The translations under genes were made by a program, and so were the position numbers. Positions 56,082-63,401 of a stretch of 64,000 bases of DNA are shown one piece after another (the stretch's first letter is position 1; every line of letters starts with the position of its first letter). Source of the DNA: Prevotella sp. (GTDB lineage Bacteria; Bacteroidota; Bacteroidia; Bacteroidales; Bacteroidaceae); contig JALFIM010000039.1 in the NCBI GenBank assembly GCA_022775985.1, positions 43,407 through 107,406 on the forward strand. Reading direction: 5' to 3'. The notes under the pieces are model-generated. The model had not been told where the DNA came from, did no database searches, and saw only the letters and a program-made list of their open reading frames with translations.

Positions 56082-57428
56082 ATGAACAAGGAATATCTTA
56101 TATACAAGCTGTCTGACGAGGTGAAAACCTCATGCAAGATAGACAACGAGCTGTTTCAGAAATATGGCGTGAAGCGCGGACTGCGCAACGAGGACGGAAG
56201 CGGCGTGCTCGTAGGCCTCACCAACATAGGCAACGTGGTGGGATACGAGCGCGACGACAGCGGACGGCTCGTACCTACGGAGGGCAAGCTCTTCTACCGT
56301 GGCTACGAGCTCGACGACCTCGTGTCACCACTGCTCGCCGAGAAACGCTTCGGCTTTGAGGAGACGGCATTTCTCCTGCTCTCAGGAAGCCTTCCCGACA
56401 GTGAGGAACTGGAGGCTTTCAAGGAACTGATAAACGAGAACATGGCCCTCGACCACAAGACCATAGTACACATCATTGACCTTGAGGGCTCCAACATCAT
56501 GAACATACTGGCACGCAGCGTGCTTGAGATGTACACCTTCGACCCCAACCCCGACGACATTTCACGCGACAACCTCATGCGGCAGGCCATAGAACTGATA
56601 GCACGTTTCCCCACTATCATAGCCTACGCCTACAACATATACCGCCACTCCGTACAGGGACGGTCGCTGCACATACGCCATCCACGCGAGAACCTCACCA
56701 TCGCCCAGAACTTCCTGTACATGCTCAAGCACGACGACTACACCGATCTCGACGCGCGTATGCTCGACATGCTGCTCATCATACAGGCGGAGCACGGCGG
56801 AGGTAACAACTCCACGTTCACCGTAAGGGTCACATCATCATCGCGTACGGACACATACTCGAGCATAGCTGCTGGCATAGGCTCGCTGAAAGGGCCGCTG
56901 CACGGAGGTGCCAACATAAAAGTGATAAACATGTTCCACCACCTGAAGGAGAACATACACGACTGGACAAACATTGACGAGATAGACACGTACCTCAACC
57001 GCATGCTGCGCAAGGAGGCATACGACAAGTCCGGGCTCATATACGGCATAGGACACGCCGTCTACACTATGAGCGACCCACGTGCGGTGGAACTGAAGAA
57101 ACTCGCCGGCGAGTTGGCCAAGGAGAAAGGACGGGAAGAGGAGTACAACTTCCTACGTCTGCTCGAGCAGGAAGGCATAAAGTGCGTGTCGCAGCACCGT
57201 AAGACGAAGAAGCCCATCTGCGCCAACGTAGACTTTTACAGCGGATTCATATATGAGATGATAGGCTTGCCTCAGGAGATATACACGCCCATATTCGCCA
57301 TGGCACGCATAGTTGGATGGATGGCGCACCGCATAGAAGAGCTCAACTTCGAGGGCCGCCGTATCATACGTCCGGCCTACAAGAACATACTCGGAATAAA
57401 GGAATACATACCCATCAACGACCGTTGA
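56082..57428 (+). CDS. gltA: Citrate synthase
   Basis: GLRNEDGSGVLVGLTNIGNVVGYE, QAEHGGGNNSTFTVRVTSSSRTD, GPLHGGANIKV. Confidence 0.95.
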   Translation: MNKEYLIYKLSDEVKTSCKIDNELFQKYGVKRGLRNEDGSGVLVGLTNIGNVVGYERDDSGRLVPTEGKLFYRGYELDDLVSPLLAEKRFGFEETAFLLLSGSLPDSEELEAFKELINENMALDHKTIVHIIDLEGSNIMNILARSVLEMYTFDPNPDDISRDNLMRQAIELIARFPTIIAYAYNIYRHSVQGRSLHIRHPRENLTIAQNFLYMLKHDDYTDLDARMLDMLLIIQAEHGGGNNSTFTVRVTSSSRTDTYSSIAAGIGSLKGPLHGGANIKVINMFHHLKENIHDWTNIDEIDTYLNRMLRKEAYDKSGLIYGIGHAVYTMSDPRAVELKKLAGELAKEKGREEEYNFLRLLEQEGIKCVSQHRKTKKPICANVDFYSGFIYEMIGLPQEIYTPIFAMARIVGWMAHRIEELNFEGRRIIRPAYKNILGIKEYIPINDR

Positions 57429-57803
57429 CAGCGGCGGCACATGCTCATGCACGCCGCACGCTGACCCATACACGCCCCCAGCAGAGACCATGTCCAGCTC
57501 TGCTGGGGGCGAACGTTACATATTCTTCATCTGGGATAAGCCACCAAGAAAGTTTTTATATATGTAAAAATGTCAAAGACCGCTTGCCCATTTCTGTGCA
57601 AATGCAAAGATACACATCTGCGCAAGCGATGTCAAGTTCCTATCAAAAAACATTTAAAACTACCTTGTTTGGAACAACACTATTCCTCTTGTAATAGTGG
57701 GTTGTGGAAAATATTTTTGTTTTTTTGAAAAATAATGAATTGCTCTATTGAAATTTAAAGAGGGACGGCATACGCCACACAGGACACGCGGTCTCCCAGT
57801 GCC

Positions 57804-59282
57804 TCAAAGTATGTCCATCGGAAAAATGATATACCTGTTGTTACAGTAATACTTCAGAGCATCATCTATCACCATGAACGCCACGGGATAGGCGGCACCG
57901 TATTTCTTGCAGGCCTCGCTGATGGCCTTGAACAAATCTGGTTCGTAGCCGTGATGGAAAAGGCTGCGCCAAAACTCTAACTGGTCCTTGAAAGTCATGT
58001 CCTGAAGGATGCGCAAAAGCGGACACGCCTTCTTCTTCAGCACTTTGTCCGCCACAAAATAGGATATAGACATATCATCGGCTGTATGCTCCAAGTCGGG
58101 GTCTATGCCGCCCTTGCACAGGTTCACATACTTGCGCAGGAACACTTCGTCGGGCACCACGCCAAGCAACTGTTCAAAAGCCAACATCTGCTCGCAGTTC
58201 TCAAGATACATGTGCAAGTCGCTGTGCTTGTCAAGCCTGTAACGGTAGGTTTCCGTCAATTCGGTCCAAGTAGAGGGGAAGGCGTTGAAGAATCTCATCT
58301 GTGCCGCACTGTCCGCCGGATGGGCGCGAAGGTAATGATAGGCATCGTCAAGATCGTACACATCGAATATGCCAGACTGTCGGCCAAGCACGCTGCGGTT
58401 GTCTGGAAACACCTTAATGGACTTGGCGTACTTTCCTGACAGGGGCATTACCATTGCCTCCTTGCACTCCATACGATAGTCATCATGCAAGCGGTATGAC
58501 AGGAAAACGCCTTTTTTGACCACGCTGTCACGGTTCTGCGCATAAGTGCTGTGGCTTTCACGTACCCGCACCCGCATTTCTGTCCACACATCCCTTTCGC
58601 CCTGCCTTGCTGCCACACTGTCAGAGAACATGTAGCGCATGTCTTCGGCAGATATGCCCCAACCTAATTGGTCACTGTACCAGAAACGGTCTGTGTATAA
58701 AGTGATAATCGAAGGCACCATGTTGCGCTCTACGGCTACGAGATGGCGGGCCTTGATGCGGCCGTCGGGCGAATAGACCAGGAGAAACACCTCGTTCACA
58801 CCCTTGCCGAATGGCAGGAGGCAGGAGGGGTCCTCACGGTAGACAAAGCACACCCTATCGCCGTTGTCAAGACGCACCTTGCCGCCGTAGCGATAGCGGA
58901 GGCCAAGGGCCGACTCGTCATCGAATCCGCGCCACAGGAACTGAGGCCCGTAGCAAGCTGGTATCTCACGGTGGGTGTTGCTCACGTTTCCGTCGCTACG
59001 AGAACACATGTAAGCATTTTCGGCATTGACATATTCTTTCACCCGTGCTTTTTCATCTCTGCTCAAGTGTGGCGCACGTTTCAAGGAGTCCAACTCAACA
59101 GTGTATAATACATACTTCCAGTTCTTTATTTCATGGAAGCCAGAAAGATATGCAGCGAAAGCGGTGCTGTCTACACTTGCCTCCACACTTGCACAGCAAT
59201 GCGCATGCGGACGGCAATGCGCCGACAATACCGCAAGCGACATGCAGAGCCACACCAAATGAAGTAACATTCCTTTTTTCAT
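57804..59282 (-). CDS. Secreted protein of unknown function, last gene of the LanC-like operon
   Basis: Signal peptide MKKGMLLHLVWLCMSLAVLSAHC; start overlaps upstream ORF by 4 bp (59279-59282). Confidence 0.8.
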   Translation of the reverse strand: MKKGMLLHLVWLCMSLAVLSAHCRPHAHCCASVEASVDSTAFAAYLSGFHEIKNWKYVLYTVELDSLKRAPHLSRDEKARVKEYVNAENAYMCSRSDGNVSNTHREIPACYGPQFLWRGFDDESALGLRYRYGGKVRLDNGDRVCFVYREDPSCLLPFGKGVNEVFLLVYSPDGRIKARHLVAVERNMVPSIITLYTDRFWYSDQLGWGISAEDMRYMFSDSVAARQGERDVWTEMRVRVRESHSTYAQNRDSVVKKGVFLSYRLHDDYRMECKEAMVMPLSGKYAKSIKVFPDNRSVLGRQSGIFDVYDLDDAYHYLRAHPADSAAQMRFFNAFPSTWTELTETYRYRLDKHSDLHMYLENCEQMLAFEQLLGVVPDEVFLRKYVNLCKGGIDPDLEHTADDMSISYFVADKVLKKKACPLLRILQDMTFKDQLEFWRSLFHHGYEPDLFKAISEACKKYGAAYPVAFMVIDDALKYYCNNRYIIFPMDIL

Positions 59283-60091
59283 CTTTCCTTTATTACATAT
59301 AGCTTATACAGCTTTCCCAAGGGATATTTATTATTGTTGTTCGGATTTTGCGGATCATAATAAATCAAATAGCCGTCATCGCTCACTCCGTTGACCACAA
59401 TTTCATGGTAAACAAGATTCTTTATTTCTTCTACCGTTCCCATCATATTCCAACTGCCGTTTTCCTTAAATCTTTTGTCTCCTTTTTTGTATAGTTTCCC
59501 TACCTCACTTCCTTTATACACATTTTCAAGCTCTTTCCCAAATTTCGGCAAGACAAAGTTCAGAAAATCAACCATATAAGATATGGCAAGCCCATCGGCC
59601 ACAGCAGGGCTGACATCCTTTTCAGCCACACCTTTTATATTCTTCAGCCAGTCACCGTAAAGGTCGCTCACACCTATGGAGTTGACTCCCTTCAGATAAC
59701 GGGCAATGCATCTATAAGCACAATCCTTTTGGTTATCCATTGCTACCTTGCTACCTTCATACTTGGCTTCATCATAAGAGTCGTTTTTCACTTCCTCTAT
59801 GTCGAAGTCCCAGTCGGAATAGTAGATGCCTGACGTACCAGACGGCGTGCTCTGTGCCTCGACAAGCCCAAGATTCTCAACGAAGCCACCGCTCCATGAG
59901 CCGTCCACGCACATTTTTTCATACTCGGCTACGGTGTAGGGTATGGACTCGCTCCCTTTCTCCACCGCAACGCCGTTAGGACACCCACCATCAATGCCAC
60001 CACCCTCAAGGCAGCCATTGCCCTCAAGGCTGAAAGAAAGCTCTCCTTGCTGTTCTTTGCTGTTGTCAACAGTTAATTTTCTTTTATCCAT
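59279..60091 (-). CDS. C39/papain-like cysteine peptidase-like protein with Gly-Gly leader-like N-terminus
   Basis: N-term MDKRKLTVDNSKEQQGELSFSLEGNGCLEGGGIDGGCPNG; candidate catalytic regions NQKDCAYRCIARYLKG (Cys) and YHEIVVNGVSDDGYLIYYDPQNP (His, Asp). Confidence 0.6.
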   Translation of the reverse strand: MDKRKLTVDNSKEQQGELSFSLEGNGCLEGGGIDGGCPNGVAVEKGSESIPYTVAEYEKMCVDGSWSGGFVENLGLVEAQSTPSGTSGIYYSDWDFDIEEVKNDSYDEAKYEGSKVAMDNQKDCAYRCIARYLKGVNSIGVSDLYGDWLKNIKGVAEKDVSPAVADGLAISYMVDFLNFVLPKFGKELENVYKGSEVGKLYKKGDKRFKENGSWNMMGTVEEIKNLVYHEIVVNGVSDDGYLIYYDPQNPNNNNKYPLGKLYKLYVIKER

Positions 60092-60095
60092 AATC

Positions 60096-60941
60096 TTATG
60101 ATTTTTGATTAAACATGTTCAGTCCCAACAAGGCAAACTCATTGTTCACCGTGTTTACGTAATGTATGAAATGCGCAGCCACGTATTCCACACGGGTTGC
60201 AAGAACCGCAGAAAAAGCAACCTTCGGCTCCAGACCTATTATTGGAAAAAGAAGGTCATCGACACTGCAACCATAAAGAGCAGCCATGTCGTTTGCCACT
60301 GCTTTTTCACTTGTCCTACAGGATAATGGCATGTGTTCAGGCGTAAAATTCACTTCAGGACATTTTATCCTGTCGCCATACCTACAACGAATCACATCGA
60401 ATACGAAACGGAAGGACTCAAACAACGACGCATCTATCGGAGTGAGGCCATCGTCACAGGCACGTATATATTCCTTACTCACCAATGGCAATATTTCGTC
60501 TGTCCACGATTGCAGCAGAGCACCGTCGAAAGACACTTCCTGACGGGCCAACATATAAAGCCCAGACGTGAAACGTCTGCTGGCATATTTACGGTCAAGA
60601 GCCCAACAGGCCCTGACATTGCCAAGCACCTTCCTGTCGACATCGCCCAACAGAGAGCATGTACTACCTTTGACAAACCCCTTACGGATGAGGTAACACA
60701 ATCCCATGCCTATGCCTGAAAAGCCGTCAAGTATGCCGTATGGCAACCGTGTGTTGTCGCCTTCAAGTACTTCGTACAGCAAGCGGTTGGCCGTCTCGGT
60801 GTAAAACGGGGCTGACATATATCGGCCGTATTCATGCAAGAACAGGCAAAGCCCAGTCTTACCATCCATAAGCCCCACGTGTCTTGTAGTGCAAAGGTTT
60901 GCCACAATAGTATTGGCCATTATCCGCAACATATTTCTCAT
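60096..60941 (-). CDS. LanC-like family protein (Bacteroidales type), no visible zinc-ligand motif
   Basis: GLMDGKTGLCLFLHEYGRYMSAPFYTETANRLLYEV, GILDGFSGIGMGLCYLIRKGFVKG, DVDRKV: hallmark of LanC-like N-terminal repeats. Confidence 0.72.
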   Translation of the reverse strand: MRNMLRIMANTIVANLCTTRHVGLMDGKTGLCLFLHEYGRYMSAPFYTETANRLLYEVLEGDNTRLPYGILDGFSGIGMGLCYLIRKGFVKGSTCSLLGDVDRKVLGNVRACWALDRKYASRRFTSGLYMLARQEVSFDGALLQSWTDEILPLVSKEYIRACDDGLTPIDASLFESFRFVFDVIRCRYGDRIKCPEVNFTPEHMPLSCRTSEKAVANDMAALYGCSVDDLLFPIIGLEPKVAFSAVLATRVEYVAAHFIHYVNTVNNEFALLGLNMFNQKS

Positions 60942-61915
60942 GACTGTCTTTCTTTTATTGCAATTCTGAATTTGTCTATCAGTTCCGGCACATGCCTGTC
61001 GAAACAGAACGACATGCGATGCCGCATGACATTGGCTTGCAGACCTGCCATCAGGATCTTATCATGGAGCATGTCCGACAGATGGTCTATGTCATGAAAC
61101 TGCATGCCTATGCCCAAATTTCTCACACAACGCTCCACCGCCACTATGTGTCCCGTGTTGTCATACTGTATCACGGGCAACGCCGCAGCCATGTAGGTGC
61201 TCAAACGGGCCGGGATGTTCAGGTCGTCCCACGACGCATCATAAAGGTCTCCATAGTTAGCACTTCTTATGCAGTGAAGCCAGGCAGCGTCATACTTCGA
61301 GAACTCTTCCGTCCATCTGTCGGGGGAACAATGGCTGTGTATGTGGAAATAGCCAGAATAAGCCTCTGCAAAATATGCAAACAACTTCTCCTTGGCCGCA
61401 AAGAAATTCTCAAGATACAGGTGCAGATGTATCCTGTTCCTGACCAAAGCCTTGACAGACGTTTCCCTTATGCCAATAAGTCGTCCTGCACACACCGTAT
61501 GCACCTCGCCGTCAGCCTCCGACAACTTGGGCGAGAACGTGTCCTTGAAATAGTCTTTCTTGGGCATATCGCCATCCATAATCATAGTAAGCACAGGTTT
61601 TGACGGCAAAAACAGCTCAAACCACTGCCTTACCGTGTCGTTAAGGAATATCCTCAACGACGCATGGCGATAAAGCCATGCCAGTTCCTGCCAGTTGCCC
61701 ATAGACACGGCAAGCTGGGGCCCTTCCTTGTAATGCCAAGCAAAAGGTATGTCGGGCAGACGGCGAACTACATCATACACCCATCCAATGGCTCCCCAGT
61801 TGAGTAAGCCGTACACGATGTCGGGACGTATACTTGCAACCGCCTCCTCCCAATTGTCATGCGGAATATCCTCCACATTACCGAAAGGCAGCGGGCCTAC
61901 GGTAGAAAAGCTCAA
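60938..61915 (-). CDS. GT4-like glycosyltransferase half; likely C-terminal part of a split GT2-GT4 protein
   Basis: SFSTVGPLPFGNVEDIPHDNWEEAVASIRPDIVYGLLNWGAIGWVYDVV ... WDDLNIPARLSTYMAAALPVIQYDN; only a TTG start, inside the previous ORF. Confidence 0.75.
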   Translation of the reverse strand: MSFSTVGPLPFGNVEDIPHDNWEEAVASIRPDIVYGLLNWGAIGWVYDVVRRLPDIPFAWHYKEGPQLAVSMGNWQELAWLYRHASLRIFLNDTVRQWFELFLPSKPVLTMIMDGDMPKKDYFKDTFSPKLSEADGEVHTVCAGRLIGIRETSVKALVRNRIHLHLYLENFFAAKEKLFAYFAEAYSGYFHIHSHCSPDRWTEEFSKYDAAWLHCIRSANYGDLYDASWDDLNIPARLSTYMAAALPVIQYDNTGHIVAVERCVRNLGIGMQFHDIDHLSDMLHDKILMAGLQANVMRHRMSFCFDRHVPELIDKFRIAIKERQS

Positions 61916-62435
61916 GTTGGGGGAAGAAGTCCTCGCTCACCCATTCGTCCCTCTCCACCCATCTCTCGTCTACACGCCGATGGGCTACCTGTACAAGCTG
62001 AAGCCAGAAACCCGGCCTGTTGCTTGTCGACTCTACATCATTGTCGCCGTGCAATGAATCGCACCTACCATACCTGATACCTGAAAAAGCCAACACCGCG
62101 TTTTCATTCTCCATGAATACAGATGCCATGGCGTCCAGATGGCCGGCATAATAGAAGTCGTCTGATGGAAGATATGCCACATATCCGTATCTGGCCATCT
62201 GCAAGCCACGGTTCACGGCATACCCAAGTCCATGGTTTTCCAGCAGACGAACATATCTTATCCTCGTGTCATGCAGAAACTCTGCCACAACAGTTTCCGT
62301 CTCGTCTGTGCTTCCATCGTCAATCACGATAAGTTCCCATCTCTCATAAGTCTGGCGAAGCAGACTTCTTATAGCCCGGCAAATGAAGCCGCACTGGTTG
62401 TAAGTGGGCATTATTACTGAAAAGCGTATGTCCAT
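61878..62435 (-). CDS. GT2 glycosyltransferase half; likely N-terminal part of a split GT2-GT4 protein
   Basis: FSVIMPTYNQCGFICRAIRSLLRQTYERWELIVIDDGSTDET, YLPSDDFYY, FWLQLVQVAHRRVDERWVERDEWVSEDFF then an abrupt end. Confidence 0.85.
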   Translation of the reverse strand: MDIRFSVIMPTYNQCGFICRAIRSLLRQTYERWELIVIDDGSTDETETVVAEFLHDTRIRYVRLLENHGLGYAVNRGLQMARYGYVAYLPSDDFYYAGHLDAMASVFMENENAVLAFSGIRYGRCDSLHGDNDVESTSNRPGFWLQLVQVAHRRVDERWVERDEWVSEDFFPQLELFYRRPAAFR

Positions 62436-62903
62436 AAACTTTATGATAAAAAGCCTGCCAAAATATTCATAATAGACTAAAATAGGTATTCTACAGTTTT
62501 TTCACATCAATAGAAGTGATGATTTGACAACAGTTCTAATTTCTGCAATATGCATATATTTGCTGTCCGACAACTCCTCTAACTGCAAAAATACAAAAAA
62601 CAATGGATTAAAAAGCCAATATTAACATAAAAAACATCAAAACGCCTATAAATATTGACAAATATTTTGTTTGTTTGCATTTTTATATTATATTATCACA
62701 TTTCATTATTCTTTAAACCATTCAACAACAGACTGCCTATTAACGCCCAACACTAATTGGTTCAGTTTGGCGAAATCAGAGAACACTTCATATAAAAAAA
62801 CGCCACCGCCGTGTAGCAAACGGCACAATACCCGCGTCTAACGGTCAGAAATACAAAAAAAGCAACGCACCCTGCGCAAGCAGGACAACAAACGACAAAC
62901 GCA

Positions 62904-63401
62904 ATGGAAACAAAACATCAACCATCCGCAGAGAGCGACATCAACCGGGAGTTCGCCCGACTCGTGAGGGAGCACAAGTCCACGATATACACCGTGTGCT
63001 ACATGTTCTCCAAAGACAATGACGAGGTGAACGACCTCTTTCAGGAGATACTCGTCAACCTGTGGCGCGGATTCGCCAAGTTTGAGGGACGCAGCGACAT
63101 ACGCACTTGGTTCTACCGTGTGAGCCTCAACACCTGCATAAGCATAGACCGCAAGAAAAAGCGCGGCAAGACCGTGCCCCTCTCCATGAACATCAACCTC
63201 TACGACGACACAGACACCGATACCAAGCAGGTGAAGATGCTCTATGACCGCATCAACAAGTTAGGTCCCTTCGACCGAGCCATAGTGCTGCTCTGGCTCG
63301 ATGGTCTGCCCTACGACGAGATAGGCGACATCGTGGGCATATCGGCCAAGAACGTATCAGTGAAGCTGGTTCGCATCAGAGAGCGACTGAAGCACTCATA
63401 G
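62904..63401 (+). CDS. ECF-type RNA polymerase sigma factor
   Basis: DEVNDLFQEILVNLWRGFAKFEGRSDIRTWFYRVSLNTCI and sigma4 LPYDEIGDIVGISAKNVSVKLVRIRERLK. Confidence 0.93.
   Translation: METKHQPSAESDINREFARLVREHKSTIYTVCYMFSKDNDEVNDLFQEILVNLWRGFAKFEGRSDIRTWFYRVSLNTCISIDRKKKRGKTVPLSMNINLYDDTDTDTKQVKMLYDRINKLGPFDRAIVLLWLDGLPYDEIGDIVGISAKNVSVKLVRIRERLKHS

What the first reader, a model, noticed from the sequence alone, without database searches (positions are those of the whole stretch)
57804..62435. Compact LanC-like / glycosyltransferase / cysteine-peptidase operon: candidate undescribed RiPP-type or secreted-effector system
Five minus-strand ORFs are packed with overlaps or 4-bp gaps (61915/61878, 60941/60938, 60096/60091, 59282/59279), implying one transcript. 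Content: GT2 and GT4-like glycosyltransferase parts, a LanC-like protein, a C39/papain-like peptidase-like protein with a leader-like N-terminus, and a signal-peptide protein of unknown function. Bacteroidales LanC-like clusters as I know them usually also carry a radical SAM/SPASM maturase, short GG-leader precursors and an ABC peptidase-exporter; none is visible here. It is either a minimal variant with a different substrate (possibly the peptidase-like protein itself) or a decaying remnant. Family assignments follow motif recognition; the joint function is inference.
Basis: partly seen in the sequence, partly recalled or inferred. Interest (0 to 1): 0.82.

Follow-up and report, generated by a model that had tools for sequence, protein, structure and literature searches.

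The report
Broken secreted-effector cassette in Bacteroidales
A gut-type bacterium carries a partly broken set of genes that, in its relatives, appears to modify, export and guard against small antibacterial-type enzymes carrying a shared N-terminal tag, which points to a little-described weapon family although this particular copy has probably lost its modifying enzyme and its exporter.

Summary
The genes are real and packed as described, but there are four genes, not five: the "GT2" and "GT4" ORFs are two pieces of one GT2-GT4 fusion (about 620 aa in relatives) that has lost about 119 codons and its frame at the junction. The LanC-like gene belongs to a Bacteroidales family that keeps the GLxxGKxG repeats but lacks the zinc site, so it is not a lanthionine cyclase. 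The "leader-like" N-terminus of the third protein is a tag, PYTxxEYxxM-W.GG[YF]V..[LM]G, found (leave-one-out E=3e-13) on 28 other Bacteroidales ORFs whose C-termini vary (C39-like, NlpC/P60, CHAP, L,D-transpeptidase, metallopeptidase, pore-like). Where a gene follows, it usually encodes a signal-peptide or membrane-anchored protein (19 of 21; control 65 of 161). In intact clusters, GT and LanC-like genes sit with a leader-cleaving ABC exporter (PCAT), HlyD, TolC and GG-leader cargo. The window's tagged protein has no GG leader, and no PCAT was found in the assembly. Best reading: an orphan, decaying cassette of a polymorphic secreted-effector system, with the signal-peptide protein as candidate immunity. 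The peptidase fold remains unproven (pLDDT 37).

The parts
62586..62619 (-). candidate Bacteroidetes-type promoter: TATTTTTG at 62593-62586 with TTG about 23 nt upstream, about 150 nt before the GT ATG
   Evidence: weak: the strict pattern TTTG-N17-23-TAnnTTTG does not match here
60938..62435 (-). one GT2-GT4 fusion glycosyltransferase gene, broken: GT2 piece 61878-62435, GT4 piece about 60938-61920, about 119 codons lost and frame changed at the junction near 61918
60096..60941 (-). LanC-like protein, 281 aa, with the GLxxGKxG repeat but no C...CH zinc site
59279..60091 (-). tagged secreted-effector-like protein, 270 aa; candidate papain/C39-like domain in residues 116-270 (C124, H in VYHEIVV, D in YYDPQ)
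59858..59956 (-). family tag (residues 46-78), containing PYTVAEYEKMCVDGSWSGGFVENLGLV
57804..59282 (-). signal-peptide protein, 492 aa, candidate immunity/partner; C-terminal 'FFNAFPSTW' module at about 57804-58340

Best explanation
The operon is an orphan, partly degraded cassette of a Bacteroidales polymorphic secreted-effector system. In intact relatives a GT (GT2-GT4 fusion or GT4) and a zinc-less LanC-like protein sit with a PCAT (C39 ABC exporter), HlyD and TolC and with cargo proteins. The cargo has a GG leader, then the tag PYTxxEFxxM-W.GGYVEG.GYV, then a variable C-terminal enzyme or pore-like domain, and a signal-peptide or lipoprotein partner usually follows. Proposed mechanism (inferred): the LanC-like protein binds or presents the cargo, the GT glycosylates it, the PCAT cuts the leader and exports the cargo, the C-terminal domain harms neighbouring bacteria (often at the peptidoglycan), and the envelope-located partner protects the producer. 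In this genome the GT gene is broken, the cargo has no GG leader, and no PCAT was found. The candidate papain-like cargo and its partner may therefore persist as an orphan effector-immunity pair or be on the way out. Shown: homologies, gene order, tag, domain variability, GT breakage. Inferred: toxicity, immunity, glycosylation, export route.
For: Tag: profile built without the window protein hits it at E=3e-13 and no other window ORF; 20 loci in Bacteroidales genomes. Variable C-termini on one N-terminus: Pfam C39_2, NlpC/P60, CHAP, YkuD, PhageMetallopep among 27 proteins scanned. Next gene carries a signal peptide or membrane anchor in 19 of 21 cases against 65 of 161 control pairs, p=1e-5 (my hydropathy rule). 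GG-type tagged proteins have PCAT, HlyD or TolC in the locus in 9 of 11 loci against 0 of 7 for the no-GG type, p=0.002 (hand tally; test). GT fusion next to LanC-like in 7 of 8 loci. Window signal-peptide protein has homologues at five other LanC or tag loci, E=2e-6 to 2e-24. Broken GT. No PCAT in own assembly. C39 domains of tagged relatives match solved structures 9jdd and 9jg8 (E=3.7e-15 for L050; E=2.9e-19 for the profile).
Against: No toxicity, immunity or glycosylation data exist for any member. The window C-terminal domain is not detected by the C39 profile of the family (437 of 2000 shuffles score as high) and only weakly by the GG-papain pair (E=0.07, 0 of 2000 shuffles); the model is poor (pLDDT 36.6). 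The assembly is a 92%-complete draft in 157 contigs, so the GT deletion could be an assembly fault and a PCAT could be missing. Some tagged genes have no exporter nearby (L050, L064).
Confidence: 0.6

Rival explanations
1. A functional minimal RiPP-type system: the LanC-like protein with a working GT (two polypeptides) modifies the 270-aa protein, which leaves by another route, as in the no-GG-leader subtype seen beside Core-2/I-branching GTs.
For: The no-GG subtype exists with GTs and without PCAT; L065 fuses a Branch-type GT to the tag in one ORF; LanC-like, cargo and partner genes are all open.
Against: The GT lacks about 119 codons spanning the GT2 end and the GT4 start; the GT fusion is otherwise mostly found in PCAT or GG-leader settings.
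Confidence: 0.15
2. The split GT is an assembly error, and the genome has an intact cluster with its exporter in the missing 8%.
For: Draft with 157 contigs, 92.05% complete; relatives have intact fusions.
Against: A deletion of about 119 codons inside a 107-kb contig is unusual for a short-read indel fault (general knowledge); the absence of a GG leader is independent of it.
Confidence: 0.12
3. The tagged proteins are self-directed cell-wall or surface enzymes exported for polysaccharide or envelope remodelling, not weapons.
For: Several C-termini are peptidoglycan hydrolases; GTs, DUF4422 and UDP-galactopyranose-mutase-like genes sit nearby.
Against: Enzyme type swaps between loci on one tag, pore-like and protease C-termini occur, tandem cargo-partner pairs occur (L051, L054, L067), and the distribution is patchy (3 clear hits in 249 genomes of the genus).
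Confidence: 0.1

Closest known systems
Bacteroidales GG-leader/PCAT RiPP clusters with LanC-like proteins (Fernandez-Cantos et al. 2023, PMC10352776, BGC3-5)
   Same: LanC-like proteins without the zinc triad, near carbohydrate-active enzymes, PCAT export of GG precursors; their BGC5 has long cores and no transporter
   Different: There: radical SAM in BGC3-5 and, in most, peptide-sized precursors. Here: protein-sized tagged cargo with enzyme domains, envelope partner genes, no radical SAM in the operon, and a broken GT
Polymorphic toxin systems (Zhang et al. 2012, PMC3482391), including Tox-PL-C39
   Same: Constant N-terminal region, variable C-terminal toxin-type domains, partner gene after each
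   Different: The passages I read list type II, V, VI, VII, PVC, PrsW and MuF export; a text search found no PCAT or double-glycine route in the main text held, and the tag and the LanC/GT module are not in what I read
Cpe1 papain-like interbacterial protease toxin (PMC12136450)
   Same: Papain/C39-type catalytic triad used as an antibacterial toxin
   Different: Carried by T6SS or CDI in Pseudomonadota; direct homology to the window protein was not tested or shown
Solved C39-like proteins 9jdd, 9jg8, 9jg9
   Same: Match the C39 domain of tagged relative L050 and the profile A7
   Different: Larger protein (617 aa); match to the window domain itself not shown; no paper found
TIGR04157 glycosyltransferase family (glyco_rSAM_CFB)
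   Same: The GT4 of cluster L047 matches over its full length (E=2.8e-60)
   Different: Below the curated cut-off; the window GT pieces do not match it

Membership tests
LanC lanthionine cyclase | LanC sequence repeats or fold | tested here: inconclusive
   Sub-threshold PF05147 E=0.0015; family profile hits LicM2 and LanKC cyclase regions at E=5e-5 to 2e-3, so the repeats are met; the fold is not established (model pLDDT 50, best Foldseek hit MadC but E=2.1)
LanC lanthionine cyclase | Zn triad C...CH | tested here: not met
   Absent in the window protein and not conserved in 14 relatives; one chance spacing match in L066
LanC lanthionine cyclase | LanB/LanM dehydratase partner | not tested
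   None among the operon genes; genome not searched
GG-leader/PCAT exported cargo | GG leader on the cargo | tested here: not met
   1.0 bit against 39-65
GG-leader/PCAT exported cargo | C39-containing ABC exporter in the genome | tested here: not met
   Best own-genome hit lacks the C39 part; 92% complete draft
W.GGYVEG.GY-tagged effector family (defined here) | the N-terminal tag | tested here: met
   E=3e-13 leave-one-out
Polymorphic toxin system | one N-terminus with many C-terminal toxin-type domains | tested here: met
   for the family as a whole
Polymorphic toxin system | adjacent immunity gene | tested here: inconclusive
   Position and signal peptide or anchor only; no binding or protection data
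Polymorphic toxin system | toxicity | not testable with these tools
   needs an experiment
Papain/C39-like peptidase | Cys-His-Asp order and fold | tested here: inconclusive
   C124, H and D aligned with relatives, but profile tests weak and model poor
GT2-GT4 fusion | both domains intact in one frame | tested here: not met

The most novel reading that the evidence does not exclude
Bacteroidales have an undescribed class of polymorphic interbacterial toxins that share a W.GGYVEG.GY tag, are handled by a zinc-less LanC-like protein plus glycosyltransferase, and leave through PCAT/HlyD/TolC. The tag would be the address or glycosylation site of the toxin, so LanC-like proteins would be substrate-presenting factors for protein glycosylation rather than cyclases. 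The window is an orphan cassette of it.
Probability: 0.3. Interest if true: 0.8.

Novelty: new variant of a known kind. Interest (0 to 1): 0.52.

Why it matters
To my knowledge few toxin delivery routes are known in gut Bacteroidales beyond T6SS and small or secreted bacteriocins. A tagged, exporter-linked, enzyme-sized cargo family would add one, and would give the many zinc-less LanC-like proteins of this order, whose role is open, a testable job.

Tried and rejected
STING-domain hits of the peptidase-like protein (E=0.011 Pfam, 0.006 PDB): treated as chance helix similarity, one short stretch below cut-off. C26 ABC hit in the own genome: a contig-end ATPase piece that looks MsbA-like, not a PCAT. 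Viral and plasmid carriage: no tagged protein confirmed in viral contigs; no match to L050 in phages or plasmids or to the GT fusion in plasmids. Defence system: no PADLOC hit. Empty-site comparison with relatives: flanking sigma and citrate synthase genes are not neighbours there, so no insertion point could be shown. Simple frameshift of the GT: rejected, since about 119 codons are also missing. Seven-sequence tag alignment gave no usable scan pattern; row 4 of the alignment used for the genome-contig scan (A3) had two residues changed to the family consensus, as a query only. Search for homologues of the L079 GG-papain: none in 295 genomes.

Full report
What is there. The window is G000:C49:43407-107406, from a 92%-complete draft assembly of 157 contigs. 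The minus-strand ORFs are as described. The first two are not two genes: GT2 (61878-62435) and GT4 (60938-61915) align to residues 7-181 and 295-614 of the 621-aa fusion in L011 at about 52%, and likewise to L012 and L066. About 119 residues are missing between them and the frame changes at CCCCC. The fusion is rare: 3 of 393 sampled genomes of the order and 4 of 349 of the family, the window's own included.

LanC-like gene. It has a sub-threshold LANC_like match, and homologues in 5 of 200 genomes of the genus, its own included. It keeps GLMDGKTG but not the C...CH zinc site; in 14 relatives the site is not conserved. A family profile finds cyclase regions of LicM2 and LanKC. The model is weak (pLDDT 50); its best fold match is MadC, but at E=2.1, so not significant. 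Zinc-less LanC-like proteins near carbohydrate-active enzymes are reported in Bacteroidales RiPP clusters (PMC10352776).

The 270-aa protein. Residues 46-78 carry a tag found in 28 other ORFs; a profile made without the window protein finds it at E=3e-13. Tagged proteins have variable C-termini. They fall into a GG-leader type and a type without it. The first sits with PCAT, HlyD or TolC in 9 of 11 loci, the second in 0 of 7 (hand tally; loci on contigs too short to judge left out; Fisher p). Five of those seven have a Branch-type GT nearby by sequence, confirmed by Pfam in three. The window protein has no GG leader. Its C-terminus shows the order C124, H, D of papain-like proteins by alignment, but profile tests are weak and the model is poor, so the fold is open.

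The signal-peptide protein. Its C-terminal module is shared with genes at L013, L053, L054, L047 and L057. Across the tagged genes, 19 of the 21 with a following gene are followed by a signal-peptide or anchored protein, against 65 of 161 control pairs. This position suggests immunity but does not prove it.

Intact relatives. L011 has PCAT, HlyD, TolC, GT fusion, LanC-like and a tagged protein; L047/L055 and L066 are similar. In L073 and L077 the same GT-LanC pair sits with a gene whose sequence looks like a radical SAM enzyme (by eye, CNLKCTYC/CNLRCKYC, not profile-tested) and small GG precursors, so the module appears to serve GG cargo of several kinds. The window's own genome shows no PCAT.

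Interpretation. I file the window as an orphan, decaying cassette of a polymorphic secreted-effector system. Not shown: toxicity, immunity, glycosylation, export. In the open-access library searched, I did not find this tag family described, which is a limited search.

Noticed in passing
L065:1313-3538: One ORF joins a Core-2/I-branching GT (PF02485, E=4.8e-23) to the tag at residue 375; could be a true fusion of GT and cargo.
   Followed up: partly
L054:7888-14564: Three GG-leader cargo genes with similar N-termini (two of them without the W.GGYV motif) and different C-termini, each followed by an apparent signal-peptide gene.
   Followed up: partly
L016, L060, L062, L067: A tagged subtype without GG leader lies beside Branch GT-methyltransferase, DUF4422 or UDP-galactopyranose-mutase-like genes; its export route is unknown.
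   Followed up: partly
window 62800-62890: Terminator-like hairpins on the minus strand between the operon promoter region and the sigma gene; 11 found in 57400-62950 against 4.7 expected.
   Followed up: no
L079:9709-13722: A 1337-aa ORF contains the GT2-GT4 fusion plus about 700 further residues, next to PCAT, HlyD, TolC and a GG-leader papain-like protein.
   Followed up: no
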